The notes beneath the pieces are model-generated. The model was not told where the DNA came from. It made no database searches and worked only from the letters and a program-made list of their open reading frames with translations. A DNA stretch of 15,111 nt from Chitinophagaceae bacterium. Its GTDB lineage: Bacteria > Bacteroidota > Bacteroidia > Chitinophagales > Chitinophagaceae. The stretch covers positions 1 to 15,111 of the forward strand of contig CANHMN010000015.1 of the NCBI GenBank assembly GCA_947461645.1, given 5' to 3'. How positions within the stretch are numbered: the first letter of the stretch is position 1; each line of letters begins with the position of its first letter. The position numbers and the translations under genes are program-made. Shown here one piece after another: positions 7,219-15,111 of this stretch.

Positions 7219-7761
7219 ATGTATGGAATAATCAACAAATCAATAGGCGAATTGGTGGCCAAAAATTTTGGAGAAGATAAATGGGATGCTGTTTTAAAAA
7301 AAAGCGGTATGGAAGACGACTATTTTATCAGCAATGAAGCCTATGATGACGCTATTACCTACAAATTGGCAGGGTCTGTTGCCGAGGTGATGAACATTAC
7401 ACTCGAACAAGTTTTGTTTGCATTTGGAGAATGGTGGATTTTGGAAACAACCCGAACAAAATACGGCGGCTTGTTGCAAAGCGGAGGAAGTAATCTCAAG
7501 GAATTTTTAATGAACCTGCCTCTTTTTCACAACCATATTATGCTTCTTTACCCCAAGCTTACTCCACCTGAATTTAGGGTGAGTGATATTAACGATAATA
7601 GCATTTGCATTCATTATTATTCTAAAAGAGTTGGCTTGAAGGAATTTGTAAGGGGCTTACTTTCAGGCTTAGGTAAACTATTCAACACTGAAACGGTTAT
7701 TGAACACATGGATTCCAAGGACAATGGCAACGATCATGAAATATTTAAAGTAAGTTGGTAA
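7219..7761 (+). CDS. H-NOX haem nitric oxide/gas sensor protein
   Basis: This is a stand-alone cytoplasmic H-NOX (HNOB) domain of 180 residues, the full family length, starting at the expected MYGIINKSIGELV. The proximal haem ligand is predicted as His104 in LPLFHNHIMLLYPKLTPPEFRV, which aligns with the His105 region of soluble guanylate cyclase beta1. The YxSxR haem-propionate motif is Tyr133-Ser135-Arg137 (YYSKR), followed by the usual GLKEFVRGLLSGLGKLF helix. No Tyr is present in residues 138-155, where O2-binding H-NOX proteins carry the distal Tyr, so an NO/CO-selective rather than O2-binding sensor is inferred. The stop is 3 nt before the ATG of an HNOBA-domain histidine kinase, which implies translational coupling and a direct partner. 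The likely role is to report NO by controlling that kinase's autophosphorylation. Confidence 0.95.
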   Translation: MYGIINKSIGELVAKNFGEDKWDAVLKKSGMEDDYFISNEAYDDAITYKLAGSVAEVMNITLEQVLFAFGEWWILETTRTKYGGLLQSGGSNLKEFLMNLPLFHNHIMLLYPKLTPPEFRVSDINDNSICIHYYSKRVGLKEFVRGLLSGLGKLFNTETVIEHMDSKDNGNDHEIFKVSW

Positions 7762-7764
7762 TTC

Positions 7765-10128
7765 ATGAATTTGAAGCTTTCCATAAACCTCTCCGACCTT
7801 AACAGCTTTTTTCCCTTCTTTTTGTTGATGAATGAAAAGATGGAAATCATTTCCTGCGGAAAATCTATTCAAAAACTTCTTACTGATCTCACAAATAAAA
7901 ACTTCAATACAGTTTTTGCCCTAGAAAGGCCCCATTATGAATCGCTCACATTTGATGAGCTCAAAGGGCTTGACAACCAAATGATTGTATTAAAGTGTAA
8001 AGAACAATCCTCTATTACCCTTCGAATGCAACCTCAATTCATTGAGGAAGAAATAAAAATACTAGTTGTAGGATCTCCATGGTTCGATACTGTTGATACC
8101 TTGGCAGAAAGCGGTTTAAAGATAAGCGACTTCGCTGCTTACAGCCCTCAAATTGATTTGTTGCATATTTTAAGCAGTCAGGAAATTGTAAACACTGAAT
8201 TGAAGGAGGTGCTTGAAAAAACAGCGAATCAAAAAAATGCACTAAAATCCGCAAACGAAAGAATACAATTGATATCCCAAGACCTTGAAACTGCAAACAA
8301 TCGTTTTGAATACGCAATTAAAGCCTCTAACGAAGCTATTTTTGATTGGGATATTGCAAATGATAAACTGTATTTCGGGAATGAATGGGGTAAGATTTTC
8401 GGCCAGTTGAATACCAGAGAAGAAAATACCATGCAAAACAATTTCGACAGGATTCACCCTGATGATATTGAAAGAATAAACGACAGAATAAGAGAAATTA
8501 TCAAATCAGATCAAACCCAATGGAATGAAGAATACAGGTACATGAAATCCAACGGGGAATACGCCGCTGTTTCCAATAGAGCTACCATATTAAGAGACCA
8601 CAATGGAAGGGCGGTCAGAATGATTGGACTTTTGAAAGACATCACCCAACAACGTAAAGAAGAGGAACAACTCCGTTTACTTGAATCTGTAATCAAATAT
8701 ACCAATGATGCTGTGGTAATCACAGAAGCCAAACCTCACAAACCTATTGTTTTTGTAAATGAAGCTTTTACAAAAATCACAGGTTATACCTTTTCAGAAG
8801 TTTTGGGCAAAAATCCGAAAATCTTTCAAGGACCAAATTCCGATAAAGAAGCTCTTCAGAATATAAGGACAGCAATTGAGTCATTCGAGCACTGCGAAGT
8901 AAATACCGTCAATTACAAAAAAAGCGGCGAAGAATATTGGGTTAGTATTTCAATCAGTCCCATCCTTGACAATCAGGGCATTTGCACGCATTGGATTGCT
9001 ATTGAAAGAGACATCACAAATCAAAAAAATACAGAGCAAGAAATTAAAATACAAAAAAAATTCACGGATGACATCCTGAACAACCTGCCTGCAGATGTTG
9101 CAGTTTTTGACGAAAATCACAGGTATCTTTTTATCAATCCGAATGCTGTCAAAAATGATGAACTCAGACAATGGATGATTGGTAAAAACGATTTTGATTA
9201 TGCTAAACTTAGGGGGATAGATGACACACTTGCCAGAAAAAGAAGAGAAATTTTTGACCACACCGTAAATACTGCATCAACATACGAATGGGTTGATGCT
9301 CATACCGGAAAGGATGGCGACCGTTACATCCTTAGAAAATTTTACCCCTATTTTGAAAAGAACAAATTAAAATTTGTAATCGGTTATGGTATAGACATTA
9401 CAGAAAGAAAACTCATAGAAATCAAATTGAGCGAAGCGCTTGAAGAAGTTCAAAAAAGCAACTCCGAATTGGAGCAATTTGCTTATGTGGCCTCACATGA
9501 TCTGCAGGAGCCGCTCAGAATGGTAACGAGCTTTCTAACCCAACTGGAAAAAAAATATGCAGAAAATTTAGACGCCAGGGCTAAAGAATATATTTACTAT
9601 GCTGTTGATGGTGCTAAAAGAATGCGGCAAATCATTTTAGATTTATTGGAATTTTCAAGAGTCGGAAAAAATGATGAAAAAACAACCAAGATTGACATGA
9701 ATGAAATTGTCAATGAAATCAAAATACTACACAGCAAACAAATACATGACCTTAATGCAACCATCAACAACGAAGAGCTTCCCGTTATTACGGGAATTAA
9801 GACTCCAGTAAGACAAGTTTTTCAAAACCTGATTGGAAATGCATTGAAATACAGCAAAAAAGATATTCCCCCATACATAAGCATCCAGTTCGAAAAAAAG
9901 GAAAAGGAATGGCTATTTTCAATTACAGACAATGGAATTGGTATTGAACCTCAGTTTCATGAAAAAATATTTGCCATTTTTCAAAGACTTCACAACAAGG
10001 ATGAGTATTCAGGAACAGGCATAGGACTAGCAATTACCAAAAAAATCGTTGAAAATCTAGGTGGTAAAATATGGCTAGAATCTGCTATAAATAAAGGAAC
10101 TACTTTTTATTTCACCATTCCTTCATAA
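7765..10128 (+). CDS. HNOBA-PAS-PAS-PAS sensor histidine kinase, H-NOX partner
   Basis: This is a 787-residue soluble histidine kinase; no membrane segment is visible. Residues about 12-145 match HNOBA, the H-NOX-associated PAS-like domain of soluble guanylate cyclase: CGKSIQKLL, RPHYESLTF, VVGSPWFDTVDTLAESGLKISDF, then DLLHILSSQE. A heptad-like coiled coil follows at about 140-182. Next come three PAS/PAC units at about 180-298 (IHPDD; LLKDITQQRK), 305-422 (LOV-like but Cys-less; ERDITNQK) and 432-550 (YGIDITERK). The HisKA H-box is FAYVASHDLQEPLR with His578, of the phytochrome-like kinase class. The ATPase has Asn692 (NLIGNALKYS), DNGIGI (722-727), IFAIFQRL and GTGIGLAI (750-757). All kinase residues look intact. 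It lies 3 nt behind the H-NOX gene and 19 nt before an Rcp1-type response regulator, its likely phosphate acceptor. NO input through H-NOX and HNOBA is inferred. Confidence 0.93.
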   Translation: MNLKLSINLSDLNSFFPFFLLMNEKMEIISCGKSIQKLLTDLTNKNFNTVFALERPHYESLTFDELKGLDNQMIVLKCKEQSSITLRMQPQFIEEEIKILVVGSPWFDTVDTLAESGLKISDFAAYSPQIDLLHILSSQEIVNTELKEVLEKTANQKNALKSANERIQLISQDLETANNRFEYAIKASNEAIFDWDIANDKLYFGNEWGKIFGQLNTREENTMQNNFDRIHPDDIERINDRIREIIKSDQTQWNEEYRYMKSNGEYAAVSNRATILRDHNGRAVRMIGLLKDITQQRKEEEQLRLLESVIKYTNDAVVITEAKPHKPIVFVNEAFTKITGYTFSEVLGKNPKIFQGPNSDKEALQNIRTAIESFEHCEVNTVNYKKSGEEYWVSISISPILDNQGICTHWIAIERDITNQKNTEQEIKIQKKFTDDILNNLPADVAVFDENHRYLFINPNAVKNDELRQWMIGKNDFDYAKLRGIDDTLARKRREIFDHTVNTASTYEWVDAHTGKDGDRYILRKFYPYFEKNKLKFVIGYGIDITERKLIEIKLSEALEEVQKSNSELEQFAYVASHDLQEPLRMVTSFLTQLEKKYAENLDARAKEYIYYAVDGAKRMRQIILDLLEFSRVGKNDEKTTKIDMNEIVNEIKILHSKQIHDLNATINNEELPVITGIKTPVRQVFQNLIGNALKYSKKDIPPYISIQFEKKEKEWLFSITDNGIGIEPQFHEKIFAIFQRLHNKDEYSGTGIGLAITKKIVENLGGKIWLESAINKGTTFYFTIPS

Positions 10129-10147
10129 ATATTTTCTATATTAGCCT

Positions 10148-10597
10148 ATGGAGAAATTTAGTGTCTTATTGGTTGAAGACAATGAAGGCGATATCCTACT
10201 TACCAAGGAAGCGCTTGAGTCAAGTCGATACATTGGCCAGCTTACCACACTCAGAAACGGACAGGCCGCCATTGATTACCTCGAAAATACCTTGGAGGAT
10301 AGGAATGCTACTTTACCCGGTATCATTTTGCTAGATATCAACCTACCCAAAAAAAACGGACTCGAGGTTCTTCAGTTCATCAAAACCCATGACAAACTGA
10401 AACATTTGCCCGTTTTGATGTTAACTACTTCCTCTGCCGAAAAAGACATAATGACTTCCTATCAAAACCACGCCAATTGTTTCATATCGAAACCAATTCA
10501 AATTGACGATTTTATGGAGCTGATTAGCAAGGTGGAAGAATTTTGGCTGAATACAGTTGCCATTCCAAATAGAAAAAACATCAGCTTTCATGGATAA
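10148..10597 (+). CDS. Single-domain response regulator (Rcp1/CheY-like)
   Basis: This 149-residue protein is only a receiver domain. The acidic pocket is Glu10-Asp11 in LLVEDNEGD, the phosphoacceptor is Asp63 in IILLDINLPKKNG, the switch Thr is Thr93 in LPVLMLTTSS, and Lys115 is in FISKPIQIDDF. The EDNEGDILLTKEALE helix start and the long beta3-alpha3 loop are typical of Rcp1-type regulators that pair with phytochrome-like kinases having ASHDLQEPLR H-boxes, exactly the type encoded just upstream. There is no output domain; about 20 residues follow the last receiver helix. It is likely the direct acceptor of the HNOBA kinase, passing phosphate on or acting by protein contact. Its last 8 nt overlap the start of the next gene (ATGGATAA). 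Confidence 0.93.
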   Translation: MEKFSVLLVEDNEGDILLTKEALESSRYIGQLTTLRNGQAAIDYLENTLEDRNATLPGIILLDINLPKKNGLEVLQFIKTHDKLKHLPVLMLTTSSAEKDIMTSYQNHANCFISKPIQIDDFMELISKVEEFWLNTVAIPNRKNISFHG

Positions 10598-12005
10598 AGC
10601 AACTCCACTGAGAATTTTAGTCATTGAGGATAATCCCGGTGACTTTCTGCTTATTCGTGATTACCTCGAAGAACAAATAGATTCCTTAGACCTTATTCAT
10701 GCCAATCGTTATTCTGAAGCAAAGAATATTCTCAGCATTAAAGAAACGTATTTTGATGTTATACTGCTCGACCTAACATTGCCGGACAATTTTGGTGAGC
10801 AACTGATTACTGATATGATGAGTATAAACAAAGGCGCTCCTTTAATAGTACTCACGGGCTTCTCTGATGTAGATTTTGGCATAAAATCATTATCTCTAAA
10901 AGCGTCGGATTACCTGGTTAAAGATGATATCAACCCGGTATCACTTTTCAAAAGCATCAAATACAACATCGAAAGAAAGAAAACCAATTTGTTGCTTGAA
11001 GAGTCAGAGAAAAAATACAGCAACCTTTTTCAGTTGAGTCCCCAACCCATGTGGATTTTTGATACAGAAAAATTTGATTTCATTCAGGTAAACAAAGCAG
11101 CAATAGATCACTATGGTTACACTGAAGAGGAGTTTTTGTCTATGAATATGACAGATATTGTTGTTTTTAACGGGGATGAGGAGGAGATTATTAAAAAGGC
11201 AAAAGATATTTCTTCCAGCAACAATGTATCCAAAGGTAGATACACTCATCGTAAAAAATCAGGAGAAGAAATCTTGGTGGAAATATATGGAAGTAAGATT
11301 CAAATCAATGACAAAGATTTTGAATCGGTGATTGCCATTGATGTCACTGAAAAGGTAAGAATGGAACACAAAATCACCAAAGCCATTATCAAAACGCAAG
11401 AAGATGAAAGGTTTGAAATTGGCAGCGAGCTGCACGACAATGTTTGTCAAATCCTTGCCAGCAGCCAGCTGAGCCTAGAAATGCTTAAAGATAATCTTCC
11501 GCCTAATGCTGAACAATGGTTCAACAAATCGAAACAATTCATCAATCTGGCATTGGAAGAAATCAGGAACATTTCTCACAAACTAGCGCCTGCTTTTTTT
11601 GAATACACAACTATTGAAGATACTTTTCATGAATTACTCAATGACATCAACGCCAACAATAAATACCAGATTGATTTAAAAATTGAAGAAGAAGTTGTTA
11701 ATCAAAAGATAGCCTCTGAACTACAGCTCAACTTATACCGAATACTTCAGGAGCAATTAAGAAATATCACCAAATACGCCAATGCAGATCACATAACCGT
11801 TGAATTGAAACTCGAACAACAAGAATTGCTGTTCAATATAATCGACAACGGAATCGGATTCAATTATGATGAGGTAAAAAAGGGCATCGGTCTATCCAAT
11901 ATCAAAAGAAGAGCGGAATTGTTTTTTGGAAAAATGGAAATTGAATCAGCACCCGGACAAGGATGCAAAATGATCATACAAATTCCTTTGCAATCCAATA
12001 AATAG
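10590..12005 (+). CDS. Receiver-PAS-histidine kinase (HisKA_3/NarX type)
   Basis: The ATG at 10590 overlaps the upstream stop as ATGGATAA and gives 471 residues. An in-frame ATG at 10557 would add 11 residues inside the preceding gene and is less likely. Domains are an N-terminal receiver at 7-125 (IEDNPGD with Glu13/Asp14, phosphoacceptor Asp61 in VILLDLTLPD, Thr89, Lys111), a PAS domain at about 143-255 (FQLSPQPMWIFDTE to AIDVTEKVR), HisKA_3 with His282 in ERFEIGSELHDNVCQILA, and a NarX-like HATPase with Asn392 (EQLRNITKYANA), IDNGIGF (418-424) and KGIGLSNIKRR. No transmembrane segment is seen. The kinase could be switched by phosphorylation of its own receiver from the HNOBA kinase, making it the second tier of a relay. 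HisKA_3 kinases normally signal to NarL/LuxR-type regulators, none of which is encoded here, so the final target probably lies elsewhere. Confidence 0.92.
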   Translation: MDKATPLRILVIEDNPGDFLLIRDYLEEQIDSLDLIHANRYSEAKNILSIKETYFDVILLDLTLPDNFGEQLITDMMSINKGAPLIVLTGFSDVDFGIKSLSLKASDYLVKDDINPVSLFKSIKYNIERKKTNLLLEESEKKYSNLFQLSPQPMWIFDTEKFDFIQVNKAAIDHYGYTEEEFLSMNMTDIVVFNGDEEEIIKKAKDISSSNNVSKGRYTHRKKSGEEILVEIYGSKIQINDKDFESVIAIDVTEKVRMEHKITKAIIKTQEDERFEIGSELHDNVCQILASSQLSLEMLKDNLPPNAEQWFNKSKQFINLALEEIRNISHKLAPAFFEYTTIEDTFHELLNDINANNKYQIDLKIEEEVVNQKIASELQLNLYRILQEQLRNITKYANADHITVELKLEQQELLFNIIDNGIGFNYDEVKKGIGLSNIKRRAELFFGKMEIESAPGQGCKMIIQIPLQSNK

Positions 12006-12091: not shown

Positions 12092-15000
12092 ATGAGAAAA
12101 ATTACCCTTTTTGTAGTAGTGCTTTTATCTTTCCAGGGAGCAAACTCCCAAACCATCGACCTCAGCAAACAATTCAAAAACTTAAAACCAAGAAACATCG
12201 GACCTGCCAGTATGAGCGGCAGAATAACGTCTATTGATGCGGTTGAGAAAAATACAAATACCATTTGGCTTGGCGCTGCCAGCGGTGGCGTTTGGAAAAC
12301 CGAAAATGGCGGAGGAAGTTGGAAACCTGTTTTTGATGAACAATCCATACAAAATATTGGCTCCATTGCCATTCAACAAAACAACCCACAGGTAGTTTGG
12401 GTTGGCACCGGAGAAGGAAATCCGAGAAACTCACTTAATATCGGAGCAGGAATTTACAAAACCATGGATGGCGGAAAAACCTTTAAATGCATGGGTTTGA
12501 AAGAAACCAGAAACATACACCGCATCATCATCGACCCCAACAATACCAATACAGTATATGTTGGTGCTATCGGAAACCCCTATGCGCAATACAAAGAAAA
12601 AGGACTTTATAAAACAACCGACGGCGGAGAAACCTGGGAACAAATTCTTAAAACCAATGATACTAGTGGCGTTTGCGATATGGTAATGGATGCCACCAAT
12701 CCAAACAAATTGTTTGTTGCCATGTGGCAGCACTACCGAACACCATACAGCTTTATGAGCGGTGGAAAAGGAAGTGGGTTTTACATGACTATTGACGGCG
12801 GAAAAAATTTCATCAAACTGGGTAAAGACAATGGTCTACCAGAAGGCGATTACGGCAGAATTGGTGTTACGATTTGTAAAACCAACCCAAACAGAGTTTA
12901 CGCCCTTATAGAAGCAAAGAAAAATGGTTTATACAAAAGTGATGACGGCGGCTACAATTGGGAATTGGTAAACAGCGATAAGGATGTAGTAACCAACAGA
13001 CCTTTTTATTTTCAGGACATCATTTGTGATCCTAAAAATGAAAACAGACTTTGGATGATCAATCAAATTGTAACCATGAGTGAAGACGCCGGTAAAACTT
13101 TTAAAACAGTAATAGCCTACAGAAACATTCATCCGGATCATCATGCTTTCTGGATAAATCCCAATGACCCCAACTTTATCATTGATGGTAATGATGGTGG
13201 TATTGGAATTACAAGAGATAGAGGCAAGACTTGGATTTTCGATGAAAAACTACCTGTAGGTCAGTTCTACCACATCAATGTTGACAATCAAAGACCATAC
13301 AATGTAATGGGTGGCATGCAAGACAATGGAAGCTGGCGAGGCCCTGCTTACACTTGGATTGACGACGGCATTAAAAATTATTACTGGGAAAGTCTTTATG
13401 GCGGAGATGGCTTTGATGTTATGCCAGACGCTGAAGAAAAAGACTGGGTATATACCATGAGCCAGGAAGGCAATCTCGTTAGAACGAATATCTCAACAGG
13501 TGAGACATGGGGCATTAAACCTCCTATGATGGATAAGAAAGCACCATTACGTTTCAATTGGAACAGCGCGATAGCTCAAGATCCTTTTGATAAAAAAACA
13601 ATTTACTTCGGAAGCCAGTATGTACATAAAAGTATAAACAAAGGGGTAAGCTGGGAAACCATCAGTCCTGATTTGAGCAACAACGATTCCTCACAAATCG
13701 ATCAAAGTAAAAACGGTGGATTGAGTGTTGATATTACAGGTGCTGAAAACCATTGTACTATCCTTTGCATAGAACCCAGTGCTTTGCAGAAGGATTTAAT
13801 TTGGGCAAGTACGGATGATGGTAATATTCAACTTACAAGAGATGGCGGGAAGACCTGGATCAATGTATCTAACAACATCAAAGGATTGTCAAAAGGAATT
13901 TGGATTCCTCAATTACGTGCAAGCAGACACAATCCTGCTGAGGCATTCGCGGTAATGAACGATTACAGAAGAGGCGATGATAAACCCTATATCTTTAGAA
14001 CAACCGACTTTGGAAAAACTTGGACAAGACTTGTAGATGAAAAGAAAGTAAACGGTTATGCGCTTTGTATGATACAAGATCCGGTTGAGCCGAATTTGTT
14101 TTTTGTAGGAACTGAAAATGGTTTATGGGTGAGCTTCGACAACGGCAAAAATTTTCAGCAATTTAAAAATGGTTATCCAAGCGTATCCACCTTCGATCTT
14201 GCCATTCAGGAAAGAGAAGCTGATTTATGCATTGCAACCTTTGGCAGAAGTTTGTGGGTGCTGGATGATATAAGACCTTTGCGCAAACTCGCCTCCACAA
14301 ACGGTACACCGGAAAAAACTTTGACCGTTTTCAATACACCGGAAGGCGTAATGGCCACTTTCAAAAACACGCCGGGTTACCAATGGAGCACCTGGGGAAT
14401 TTGGGATGCAGAAAATAGAAAATCAGGATTGCCTGTTTCCTTTTACATCAAATCGTTCCCTCCAAAAGAAAAAAAGGATTCAGTTGGTACTGATAAAAAT
14501 GAAAAGAAAGAACAAACGAAAAAAGAAGTAATTGATACCGTTACTGTAAAAATATACAACGAAGTCGACTCACTCATAAGAACGCTGAAATGGAAAGTAG
14601 ACACAGGTTTCAACAGAATGACATGGAACATGGAGGAAAGAGGTCAAAGACAAATCGGAAGTGCCAAACCAAAGGAAAATGCACCTGAACCAGGAGGACC
14701 AAGAGTATTACCCGGAAAATACAAATTGATGTTATCTCTCGGCAAAGAAAAGGACAGCGCTATAGCTACAATAATTGATGATCCGAGACTTGAAGACAGA
14801 ACAACCATAAGAAAAGCACAGCAATTGATGCAGAAAAGGCTTTTCAGAAGCGTAGACAGCTTAAATACTGCTATGGATAAATTGACCGACATTGAAGATG
14901 CGATTGTAAAAGTAAACGCCTTGATTAAAGATGAAAAAGGCAATGATATTGATAGTATCAACAAGCAAACTAAAAATATAGAAAAAGAAATCAAAAACAT

Positions 15001-15111
15001 CCGTGAATTCATCAAAGGAAAAGAGCAGGAAAAACAAGGTTACGGTCAGGTTGAACAGGTAACAGTTTTGAATGTGTATTATGAAGCTCAGCAATACATC
15101 AGAAATAAAAA
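12092..15111 (+). CDS. Secreted multi-Asp-box (BNR/sortilin-like) beta-propeller protein, 3' end outside window
   Basis: The frame is open from ATG 12092 to the window end (1006 complete codons, no stop). Residues 1-19 form a signal peptide (MRKITLFVVVLLSFQGANS, cleavage likely before Gln20), so the product is exported. From about residue 70 to 690 there are about eleven Asp-box motifs (S/T-x-D/N-x-G-x-x-W/F), such as TENGGGSW, TMDGGKTF, TTDGGETW, SDDGGYNW, TRDGGKTW and SFDNGKNF. These mark beta-propeller blades of sialidase/VPS10-like type. Other family marks are NIGPASMSGRI near 36-45 and MGGMQDNGSW near 406. A Lys/Glu-rich low-complexity stretch starts near residue 790, and helical, coiled-coil-like sequence fills about 905-985. 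Databases often label this Bacteroidota family glycosyl hydrolase or VPS10 domain protein; no catalytic residues are evident and the substrate is unknown. A TAnnTTTG promoter lies just upstream. Confidence 0.88.
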   Translation, partial: MRKITLFVVVLLSFQGANSQTIDLSKQFKNLKPRNIGPASMSGRITSIDAVEKNTNTIWLGAASGGVWKTENGGGSWKPVFDEQSIQNIGSIAIQQNNPQVVWVGTGEGNPRNSLNIGAGIYKTMDGGKTFKCMGLKETRNIHRIIIDPNNTNTVYVGAIGNPYAQYKEKGLYKTTDGGETWEQILKTNDTSGVCDMVMDATNPNKLFVAMWQHYRTPYSFMSGGKGSGFYMTIDGGKNFIKLGKDNGLPEGDYGRIGVTICKTNPNRVYALIEAKKNGLYKSDDGGYNWELVNSDKDVVTNRPFYFQDIICDPKNENRLWMINQIVTMSEDAGKTFKTVIAYRNIHPDHHAFWINPNDPNFIIDGNDGGIGITRDRGKTWIFDEKLPVGQFYHINVDNQRPYNVMGGMQDNGSWRGPAYTWIDDGIKNYYWESLYGGDGFDVMPDAEEKDWVYTMSQEGNLVRTNISTGETWGIKPPMMDKKAPLRFNWNSAIAQDPFDKKTIYFGSQYVHKSINKGVSWETISPDLSNNDSSQIDQSKNGGLSVDITGAENHCTILCIEPSALQKDLIWASTDDGNIQLTRDGGKTWINVSNNIKGLSKGIWIPQLRASRHNPAEAFAVMNDYRRGDDKPYIFRTTDFGKTWTRLVDEKKVNGYALCMIQDPVEPNLFFVGTENGLWVSFDNGKNFQQFKNGYPSVSTFDLAIQEREADLCIATFGRSLWVLDDIRPLRKLASTNGTPEKTLTVFNTPEGVMATFKNTPGYQWSTWGIWDAENRKSGLPVSFYIKSFPPKEKKDSVGTDKNEKKEQTKKEVIDTVTVKIYNEVDSLIRTLKWKVDTGFNRMTWNMEERGQRQIGSAKPKENAPEPGGPRVLPGKYKLMLSLGKEKDSAIATIIDDPRLEDRTTIRKAQQLMQKRLFRSVDSLNTAMDKLTDIEDAIVKVNALIKDEKGNDIDSINKQTKNIEKEIKNIREFIKGKEQEKQGYGQVEQVTVLNVYYEAQQYIRNK

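What the first reader, a model, noticed from the sequence alone, without database searches (positions are those of the whole stretch)
7219..12005. Four-gene H-NOX/HNOBA phosphorelay operon in a Bacteroidota-like genome
The sequence shows H-NOX, HNOBA-PAS3-kinase, single receiver and REC-PAS-HisKA_3 kinase genes on one strand with gaps of 3 and 19 nt and an 8-nt overlap. H-NOX proteins are established NO/O2 sensors that often act on an adjacent kinase. Here the relay is unusually deep: two kinases and two receivers. I infer that NO binding to H-NOX modulates the first kinase, which phosphorylates the Rcp1-like protein and/or the receiver of the second kinase.
Basis: partly seen in the sequence, partly recalled or inferred. 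Interest (0 to 1): 0.78.

Follow-up and report, generated by a model that had tools for sequence, protein, structure and literature searches.

The report
Nitric-oxide sensor driving two-kinase cascade
In one genus of environmental Bacteroidota-type bacteria, a haem protein that probably senses nitric oxide sits in a four-gene operon with two signalling kinases and two receivers, and the sensor part seems to have been grafted onto a ready-made two-kinase cascade used elsewhere with other sensors.

Summary
The four genes are present as described: H-NOX, HNOBA-PAS3-HisKA kinase, Rcp1-type receiver, REC-PAS-HisKA_3 kinase. The order is complete in 14 of the 22 H-NOX-bearing genomes among 93 of the genus, and a REC-HisKA_3 gene was found in the gene runs of 0 of 72 H-NOX loci from other genera of the order. 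Haem-site residues are kept; the distal site has Phe, not Tyr, so NO is the likelier ligand (rule recalled). The gene-2 kinase core groups with kinases of H-NOX-less loci that carry HK - REC - REC-PAS-HisKA_3 with other sensors, while its H-NOX+HNOBA group with HNOBA hybrid systems; descent from two non-hybrid HNOBA kinases is not excluded (p 0.086). Best reading: an H-NOX/HNOBA sensor grafted onto a branched two-kinase cascade that works like rhizobial BphP1-AgR-ExsG (PMC3899027). No Hpt was found, so it is a kinase cascade rather than a classical phosphorelay. Output is probably a NarL/LuxR-type regulator elsewhere, not identified. New variant of a known kind. Haem binding, signal sign and phosphotransfer are untested.

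The parts
7219..7761 (+). Gene 1: stand-alone H-NOX (HNOB), 180 aa; His104, Tyr133-x-Ser135-x-Arg137, Trp73, Phe143 at the place of Alr2278 Met144
   Evidence: Pfam HNOB 169.6 bits; Alr2278 1.9e-47; residues by alignment
7765..10128 (+). Gene 2: HNOBA - coiled coil - three PAS - HisKA - HATPase_c kinase, 787 aa, no fused receiver
   Evidence: Pfam; Nostoc STHK 2p04/2p08 and sGC chains
7765..8292 (+). HNOBA (PAS-like) domain and following helix of gene 2
   Evidence: matches 2p04 (9.2e-6) and sGC alpha-1/beta-1
9469..9666 (+). HisKA (DHp) of gene 2, H-box SHDLQEPLR
   Evidence: Pfam HisKA residues 569-634; alignment
10148..10597 (+). Gene 3: single-domain Rcp1/RcpA-type receiver, 149 aa, active-site residues kept
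   Evidence: Pfam Response_reg; RcpA 7.8e-34, Rcp1 5.6e-33; active site
10590..12005 (+). Gene 4: REC - PAS - HisKA_3 - HATPase_c kinase, 471 aa from ATG 10590
   Evidence: Pfam; H-box ELHDNVCQ
10614..10925 (+). N-terminal receiver of gene 4; alpha-1 helix resembles that of gene 3
   Evidence: Pfam residues 9-112
11406..11591 (+). HisKA_3 domain of gene 4; expected partner class NarL/LuxR regulators (recalled)
   Evidence: Pfam residues 273-334

Best explanation
An NO-responsive, branched two-kinase cascade. Shown by sequence: an intact H-NOX beside a kinase that begins with the HNOBA domain (together the split equivalent of the sensory half of soluble guanylyl cyclase), an Rcp1-type receiver and a second kinase whose N-terminus is a receiver. 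Inferred: NO binds the haem of H-NOX; H-NOX docks on the HNOBA/coiled-coil part and changes gene-2 autophosphorylation (inhibition is somewhat more likely, as in HnoX/HnoK; the sign is open). Gene 2 phosphorylates both the free receiver (a sink, competitor or protein-protein output) and the receiver of gene 4, which switches gene 4's HisKA_3 kinase/phosphatase, and gene 4 sets the phosphorylation of a NarL/LuxR-type regulator encoded elsewhere. Evolutionarily, the H-NOX/HNOBA sensor cassette was most likely fused onto the kinase of a pre-existing three-gene module (HK - REC - REC-PAS-HisKA_3) that other loci of the genus use with MASE11 or PAS/GAF sensors.
For: Conserved operon: 14 of 22 H-NOX-bearing genomes of 93 in the genus are complete; one more has a broken H-NOX, one lacks gene 3, two are cut by contig ends. 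Six H-NOX-less HK-REC-REC-PAS-HisKA_3 modules in five genus genomes, one with a MASE11 sensor, one with PAS/GAF and an adjacent REC-GerE regulator. The gene-2 core groups with module kinases (22 rows, SH-aLRT 97); joining it to the HNOBA hybrid kinases is rejected in two of three row sets (AU p 0.0006; p 4e-6). H-NOX+HNOBA lie instead in a clade with the hybrid systems (support 0.954). Alpha-1 of the two receivers 42% identical versus 23% over the following part. Comparable H-NOX loci carry NarL-type regulators: L062, L069 (H-NOX, HNOBA-HisKA_3 kinase, GerE regulator) and L105 (GerE regulator, REC, H-NOX, HNOBA kinase, REC-kinase). Natural deletions fit: L137 lacks gene 3; L155 lacks H-NOX but keeps the rest. 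Precedent: BphP1-AgR-ExsG-ExsF (PMC3899027, passages).
Against: No biochemistry. No DNA-binding regulator in the operon, and none could be assigned: the gene-4 DHp is only 22-41% identical to ten HisKA_3 kinases that neighbour a NarL regulator. In the third row set (without LytTR-linked kinases) joining gene 2 with the hybrids was not rejected (p 0.312). Two non-hybrid HNOBA kinases, L092 and L096, have SHDL-class cores, 0.42-0.43 DHp identity to gene 2, and stand next to the gene-2 plus module clade; joining gene 2 with them is not rejected at 0.05 (p 0.086), so descent from such a kinase is not excluded. In the sensor tree 14 of 16 four-gene types form one clade (0.968) but L137 and L138 fall elsewhere. 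The EDN part is common to receivers and the phosphoacceptor segment is as similar as alpha-1. NirK over cut-off occurs in only 1 of 22 H-NOX carriers, so an own NO source is not evident.
Confidence: 0.58

Rival explanations
1. Simple H-NOX two-component system: gene 2 signals only to the free receiver gene 3; gene 4 is an independent kinase that is merely co-transcribed.
For: Gene 3 is of the Rcp1 class that normally partners such kinase cores (recalled). REC-PAS-HisKA_3 genes also occur without an adjacent HK and REC (L157, L159, L165).
Against: L137 keeps gene 4 directly after gene 2 and lacks gene 3, the opposite of what this predicts; HK-REC-REC-PAS-HisKA_3 travels as a unit in six H-NOX-less modules; the five receiver active-site positions examined are invariant in the 17 gene-4 receivers.
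Confidence: 0.2
2. Classical phosphorelay: phosphate moves from gene 2 to a receiver and back to a histidine of gene 4, then on to a final regulator.
For: Alternation of HK, REC and REC-HK could in principle pass phosphate.
Against: No Hpt domain in any of the four proteins; HisKA_3 kinases autophosphorylate from ATP (recalled); ExsG passed phosphate to ExsF but not to AgR or its own receiver (PMC3899027, passage).
Confidence: 0.07
3. The H-NOX senses O2, redox state or haem rather than NO.
For: Some H-NOX proteins sense oxygen or respond to oxidation (PMC7108781, abstract start in the listing; PMC12329717, title in the listing). NirK is absent from most carriers.
Against: Phe, not Tyr, at the place of the distal O2-stabilising residue in all 20 aligned H-NOX sequences that reach that column, of 21 aligned with Alr2278 (rule and position recalled). 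Co-occurrence with FIST proteins, which may bind NO: 17 of 22 carriers versus 34 of 71 others, p 0.026, not corrected for ancestry (PMC8846402, passage).
Confidence: 0.15

Closest known systems
BphP1 - AgR - ExsG - ExsF cascade of rhizobia (PMC3899027, passages read)
   Same: Sensor kinase feeding a free receiver and the N-terminal receiver of a second, soluble kinase; branched; the second kinase passes phosphate on.
   Different: ExsG has an HWE kinase core; input is light (phytochrome); its target ExsF is a single-domain receiver. Here the input is H-NOX/HNOBA, the second kinase is REC-PAS-HisKA_3 and the target is unknown.
Nostoc H-NOX and HNOBA histidine kinase (Alr2278; STHK structures 2p04/2p08)
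   Same: Stand-alone H-NOX (best solved match) and an HNOBA kinase.
   Different: Here the kinase has no fused receiver and is followed by a receiver and a second kinase. Gene order and kinase type in Nostoc are recalled, not checked.
HnoX/HnoK/HnoB/HnoC/HnoD of Shewanella (PMC6335343, PMC8738867 and PMC8846402, passages)
   Same: H-NOX acting on a kinase that branches to several receivers.
   Different: No EAL, HD-GYP or DNA-binding regulator in this operon; HnoS is a second kinase converging on the same regulators, not a kinase downstream of HnoK.
HNOBA hybrid kinase plus sigma-54 regulator loci of the same order (for example L037, L090, L091, L098, L102-L104)
   Same: H-NOX and HNOBA sensor in one well-supported clade with the window's.
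   Different: Kinase core of the SHEIRTP class with fused receiver; NtrC-type regulator instead of REC plus REC-PAS-HisKA_3.

Membership tests
H-NOX (HNOB, PF07700) | profile match over cut-off | tested here: met
   169.6 bits, cut-off 25.5
H-NOX (HNOB, PF07700) | proximal His and YxSxR haem-propionate motif (recalled roles) | tested here: met
   His104, Tyr133/Ser135/Arg137 aligned to Alr2278 His105, Tyr134/Ser136/Arg138
H-NOX (HNOB, PF07700) | binds haem and NO | not testable with these tools
   needs protein
O2-binding H-NOX | distal Tyr (recalled rule and position) | tested here: not met
   Phe143 at the place of Alr2278 Met144
HNOBA histidine kinases | N-terminal HNOBA plus HisKA and HATPase_c | tested here: met
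   77.0 bits, cut-off 23.4; HisKA 34.4, HATPase_c 95.6
Rcp1/RcpA phytochrome response regulators | single receiver, closest to Rcp1/RcpA | tested here: met
   1k68 7.8e-34, 1i3c 5.6e-33
ExsG-type cascade | kinase with N-terminal receiver beside a free receiver and an upstream kinase | tested here: met
ExsG-type cascade | HWE kinase core in the second kinase | tested here: not met
   HisKA_3
ExsG-type cascade | first kinase phosphorylates both the free receiver and the REC-kinase | not testable with these tools
   only indirect: DHp class, shared alpha-1 helix
Classical phosphorelay | Hpt or equivalent intermediate His | tested here: not met
   no Hpt in the four proteins; the rest of the genome was not searched for Hpt
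HnoX/HnoK system | EAL or DNA-binding response regulator in the locus | tested here: not met
   the next gene is a Sortilin/BNR protein

The most novel reading that the evidence does not exclude
The H-NOX/HNOBA pair is a portable NO-sensing cassette that was transplanted onto a phytochrome-type kinase driving a two-kinase cascade, and this cascade converges with a second, FIST/NosP-like sensor (FIST - HisKA_3 kinase - NarL regulator, seen as a cluster in two genus genomes) on one NarL-type regulator, so that two NO inputs share one output.
Probability: 0.15. Interest if true: 0.72.

Novelty: new variant of a known kind. Interest (0 to 1): 0.5.

Why it matters
It looks like a natural sensor swap: the same output module (HK - REC - REC-PAS-HisKA_3) with H-NOX/HNOBA, MASE11 or PAS/GAF inputs, plus natural deletions of H-NOX and of the free receiver. 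That makes two open questions testable with a small soluble system: how an HNOBA domain passes an NO signal to a kinase (the same pair of domains as in soluble guanylyl cyclase), and what a kinase with an N-terminal receiver does in a cascade.

Tried and rejected
Whether the four-gene order is spread across the order: no REC-HisKA_3 gene in the runs of 72 non-genus H-NOX loci. A run was at most three genes each way on the same strand with gaps up to 260 nt, found with a simple ORF caller and local profiles. L043 gave no H-NOX ORF and G245's sub-cut-off match was not fetched.

Whether H-NOX goes with own NO production by NirK: over cut-off in 1 of 22 carriers versus 7 of 71 others, no association. 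NirS, NorB and NosZ were not searched.

Whether the partner of gene 4 is the NarL regulator of the FIST cluster: DHp identity 0.345-0.374 and a different H-box, HDGVGH versus HDNVCQ, so the kinase gives no support. The regulator beside module L162 is 42-43% identical to the three FIST-type regulators versus 22-32% to ten other NarL regulators of G000, G349 and G405, weak support. FIST proteins occur in 17 of 22 H-NOX carriers and 34 of 71 others (p 0.026); at E<=1e-35, a threshold set after seeing the list, 17 of 22 versus 16 of 71 (p 6e-6) (no correction for shared ancestry). No FIST match was found in the window's own incomplete genome.

A Bacteroidota-type -7 box (TAnnTTTG, recalled) upstream of H-NOX: in 3 of 18 upstream regions and not in the window, so no promoter is claimed.

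Rfam and tRNA scans of the window were empty; a PHROGs scan of H-NOX was empty. The scan of genome contigs with gene 2 gave four loci that I did not analyse. The first T/S column was misplaced and was rechecked. Structure prediction was not used.

Rows dropped: one search used 48 H-NOX-HNOBA pairs (H-NOX under 150 aa or HNOBA under 100 aa left out, L146 and L152 among them). One search used at most 12 LytTR-linked kinases. One search left out LytTR-linked kinases and L039; one search left out all non-hybrid HNOBA kinases; one search left out L036, L039, L105 and L160_5 (long or partial rows). One search gave no H-box for the own C29 kinase and did not include L162. One search scored at most 27 candidates per genome.

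Full report
OBSERVATION. Four + strand genes lie at 7219-7761, 7765-10128, 10148-10597 and 10590-12005. Pfam assigns HNOB; HNOBA, three PAS_4 stretches, HisKA and HATPase_c; Response_reg; and Response_reg, PAS, HisKA_3 and HATPase_c. Upstream on the - strand lies an 819-aa ORF that I call thrA (aspartokinase-homoserine dehydrogenase) and further ORFs that look like threonine/lysine-pathway genes; these names are mine from the sequence, no call. Downstream is a long Sortilin/BNR-repeat protein from ATG 12092 that runs off the window. The genome is a 1.65 Mb MAG, 73.8% complete, with one H-NOX match.

SENSOR. The best solved relative of gene 1 is Alr2278 of Nostoc (1.9e-47). His104 and Tyr133-x-Ser135-x-Arg137 align with the proximal His and propionate-binding residues of Alr2278 (roles recalled). 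The residue in the place of Met144 is Phe in the window and in the 19 aligned relatives that reach it; L153 is truncated before that site, and the broken L152 has His in place of the Arg. By the recalled rule that O2 binders carry a Tyr there, this is an NO-type H-NOX. The first 176 residues of gene 2 match the HNOBA/H-NOXA domain of Nostoc STHK (2p04, 9.2e-6) and of soluble guanylyl cyclase subunits.

CONSERVATION IN THE GENUS. H-NOX occurs in 22 of 93 genus genomes. I fetched the other 21 loci (2, 19) and mapped ORFs with a simple caller and local profiles. 14 of 22, the window included, have all four genes in order. Of the other eight: L152 (G410) has a broken H-NOX followed by the three other genes; L137 (G429) lacks gene 3; L146 and L150 are cut by contig ends; L136, L151, L153 and L154 are a different, sigma-54-regulator type (in L154 the H-NOX is broken). 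L155 (G405, 99% complete, no H-NOX match) keeps genes 2-4 without H-NOX. thrA lies beside the operon in 18 of the 19 loci of this type (a small ORF between in L101 and L142); the 19th, L139, starts at a contig end. Identity to the window over the 13 other complete operons averages 0.66, 0.52, 0.57 and 0.59 for genes 1-4.

CONSERVATION OUTSIDE. In the order, 75 of 396 genomes have a match. Of 75 fetched loci, 73 are from other genera and 72 of these gave an H-NOX ORF. The first gene downstream is a kinase in 69 of 72 and carries HNOBA in 31 (in L100 as a separate 197-aa ORF). In the gene runs LytTR regulators occur in 27, sigma-54 regulators in 10, GerE regulators in 4, and a REC-HisKA_3 gene in 0. 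Two loci have another kinase with a leading receiver (L060, L105). L105 is the closest parallel: REC-GerE regulator, REC, H-NOX, HNOBA kinase and REC-HisKA kinase in one run.

WHERE THE KINASE CAME FROM. Homologues of gene 4 occur in 22 of 59 genus genomes at E<=1e-60. Of the 12 loci without H-NOX fetched, five (L156, L158, L160, L161, L162) show HK - REC - REC-PAS-HisKA_3, six modules since L160 has two (in L156 and L162 the contig end cuts a gene, in L158 HK and REC are 397 nt apart). Their genomes have no H-NOX match. Sensors differ: MASE11 in L161, PAS/GAF in L162 (Pfam), PAS in L160. L163 has the genes in another order; L157, L159 and L165 have the gene without an adjacent HK and REC; L164, L166 and L167 hold larger fused forms. 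The DHp of gene 2 is on average 0.68 identical to ten kinases from these loci (0.72 to the six directly before REC and REC-PAS-HisKA_3), 0.26 to 18 HNOBA hybrid kinases and 0.26 to 13 HNOBA non-hybrid kinases. Among the last, L092 and L096 reach 0.42-0.43 and stand next to the gene-2 plus module clade. Maximum-likelihood trees put gene 2 with module kinases (22 rows, SH-aLRT 97). Joining gene 2 with the HNOBA hybrids is rejected when LytTR-linked kinases are in the set (AU p 0.0006; p 4e-6 with all groups) but not without them (p 0.312). Joining it with L092 and L096 is not rejected at 0.05 (p 0.086). H-NOX plus HNOBA, in contrast, lie in a 36-row clade (0.954) with 17 hybrid systems and three non-hybrid ones (L036, L100, L105), away from L092 and L096; 14 of the 16 four-gene rows form a clade of their own (0.968), L137 and L138 fall elsewhere. 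The simplest account is a domain graft: sensor from one lineage, kinase core from another.

RECEIVERS. Gene 3 is of the RcpA/Rcp1 class. Acidic pair, Asp, Thr and Lys are invariant in the 16 gene-3 and 17 gene-4 receivers examined. Within 16 operons the two receivers are 42% identical in alpha-1, the helix that docks on the kinase (recalled), against 23% over the following part; the same stretch is 12-16% identical to fused or NtrC receivers. The phosphoacceptor segment is as similar as alpha-1, so this suggests, but does not prove, that both dock on gene 2.

MECHANISM. Shown: parts, order, conservation, intact motifs. Inferred: NO-loaded H-NOX alters gene-2 autophosphorylation; gene 2 phosphorylates gene 3 and the gene-4 receiver; this switches gene 4; gene 4 sets a NarL/LuxR-type regulator. 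In ExsG, phosphorylation of the N-terminal receiver inhibits the kinase core, and the authors describe BphP1, AgR, ExsG and ExsF as a branched pathway (PMC3899027, passages). If NO inhibits gene 2, as NO-H-NOX does with its kinase in Shewanella and Vibrio cholerae (PMC8738867, passages), and gene 4 behaves like ExsG, NO would switch gene 4 on by relief of inhibition; both signs are untested. The gene-2 H-box SHDLQEP lacks the Thr/Asn of the HisKA phosphatase motif, and gene 4 has the HDxxxQ form (motifs recalled; sequences).

OUTPUT. No DNA-binding regulator is in the operon. Module L162 has a REC-GerE regulator 35 nt upstream of its kinase, and H-NOX loci L062, L069, L105 and L108 have GerE regulators in their runs, so a NarL-type output is likely. 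The complete relative G349 has nine GerE matches; none could be matched to gene 4.

LITERATURE. Nine searches; H-NOX with Chitinophag gave no paper; two searches listed 20 of 28 and 20 of 176 papers. I read passages of six papers. None of the titles, abstract starts or passages seen describes this operon; the library is open-access PMC only.

VERDICT. Observation confirmed; interpretation partly supported; a new variant of a known kind (H-NOX-controlled kinase) joined to an ExsG-like two-kinase cascade.

Noticed in passing
L037, L090, L091, L051 (partly L043): Four H-NOX loci of the order with a sigma-54 regulator upstream hold an exopolysaccharide cluster in the same stretch (Poly_export, Wzz and glycosyltransferase by Pfam in L037; phmmer homologues in the others), suggesting NO control of matrix production.
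   Followed up: partly
L136, L153, L098: A FIST/FIST_C protein (the NosP architecture) is in the same gene run as H-NOX, next to a sigma-54 regulator: two candidate NO sensors side by side.
   Followed up: partly
L172 600-5116; L174 442-5010; L168 1524-3287: FIST - PAS-HisKA_3 kinase - NarL regulator cluster in G349 and G405; FIST and GerE matches lie about 4 kb apart on one contig in G213, G404, G429 and G443 too. In the window's genome the contig breaks inside the kinase.
   Followed up: partly
L105 6218-11255: Five-gene H-NOX run with GerE regulator, free receiver, HNOBA kinase and REC-HisKA kinase, another two-kinase H-NOX system in a different genus.
   Followed up: partly
L155 4505-8397 (G405): HNOBA kinase, receiver and REC-PAS-HisKA_3 kinase kept beside thrA with no H-NOX match in the genome, a natural test of HNOBA function without H-NOX.
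   Followed up: partly
L062 10232-14186 and L069: HNOBA on a HisKA_3 kinase with a NarL regulator next to it: a one-step version of the proposed pathway.
   Followed up: partly
L101 1163-5315 (G213): The FIST match at G213:C8:108261-108836 lies in a 394-aa ORF followed by a PAS kinase and a receiver, convergent with the four-gene operon.
   Followed up: no
window 12092-15109: Sortilin/BNR-repeat protein starting 86 nt after gene 4; no homologue was labelled next to the operon in the relatives mapped, so probably not part of it.
   Followed up: no
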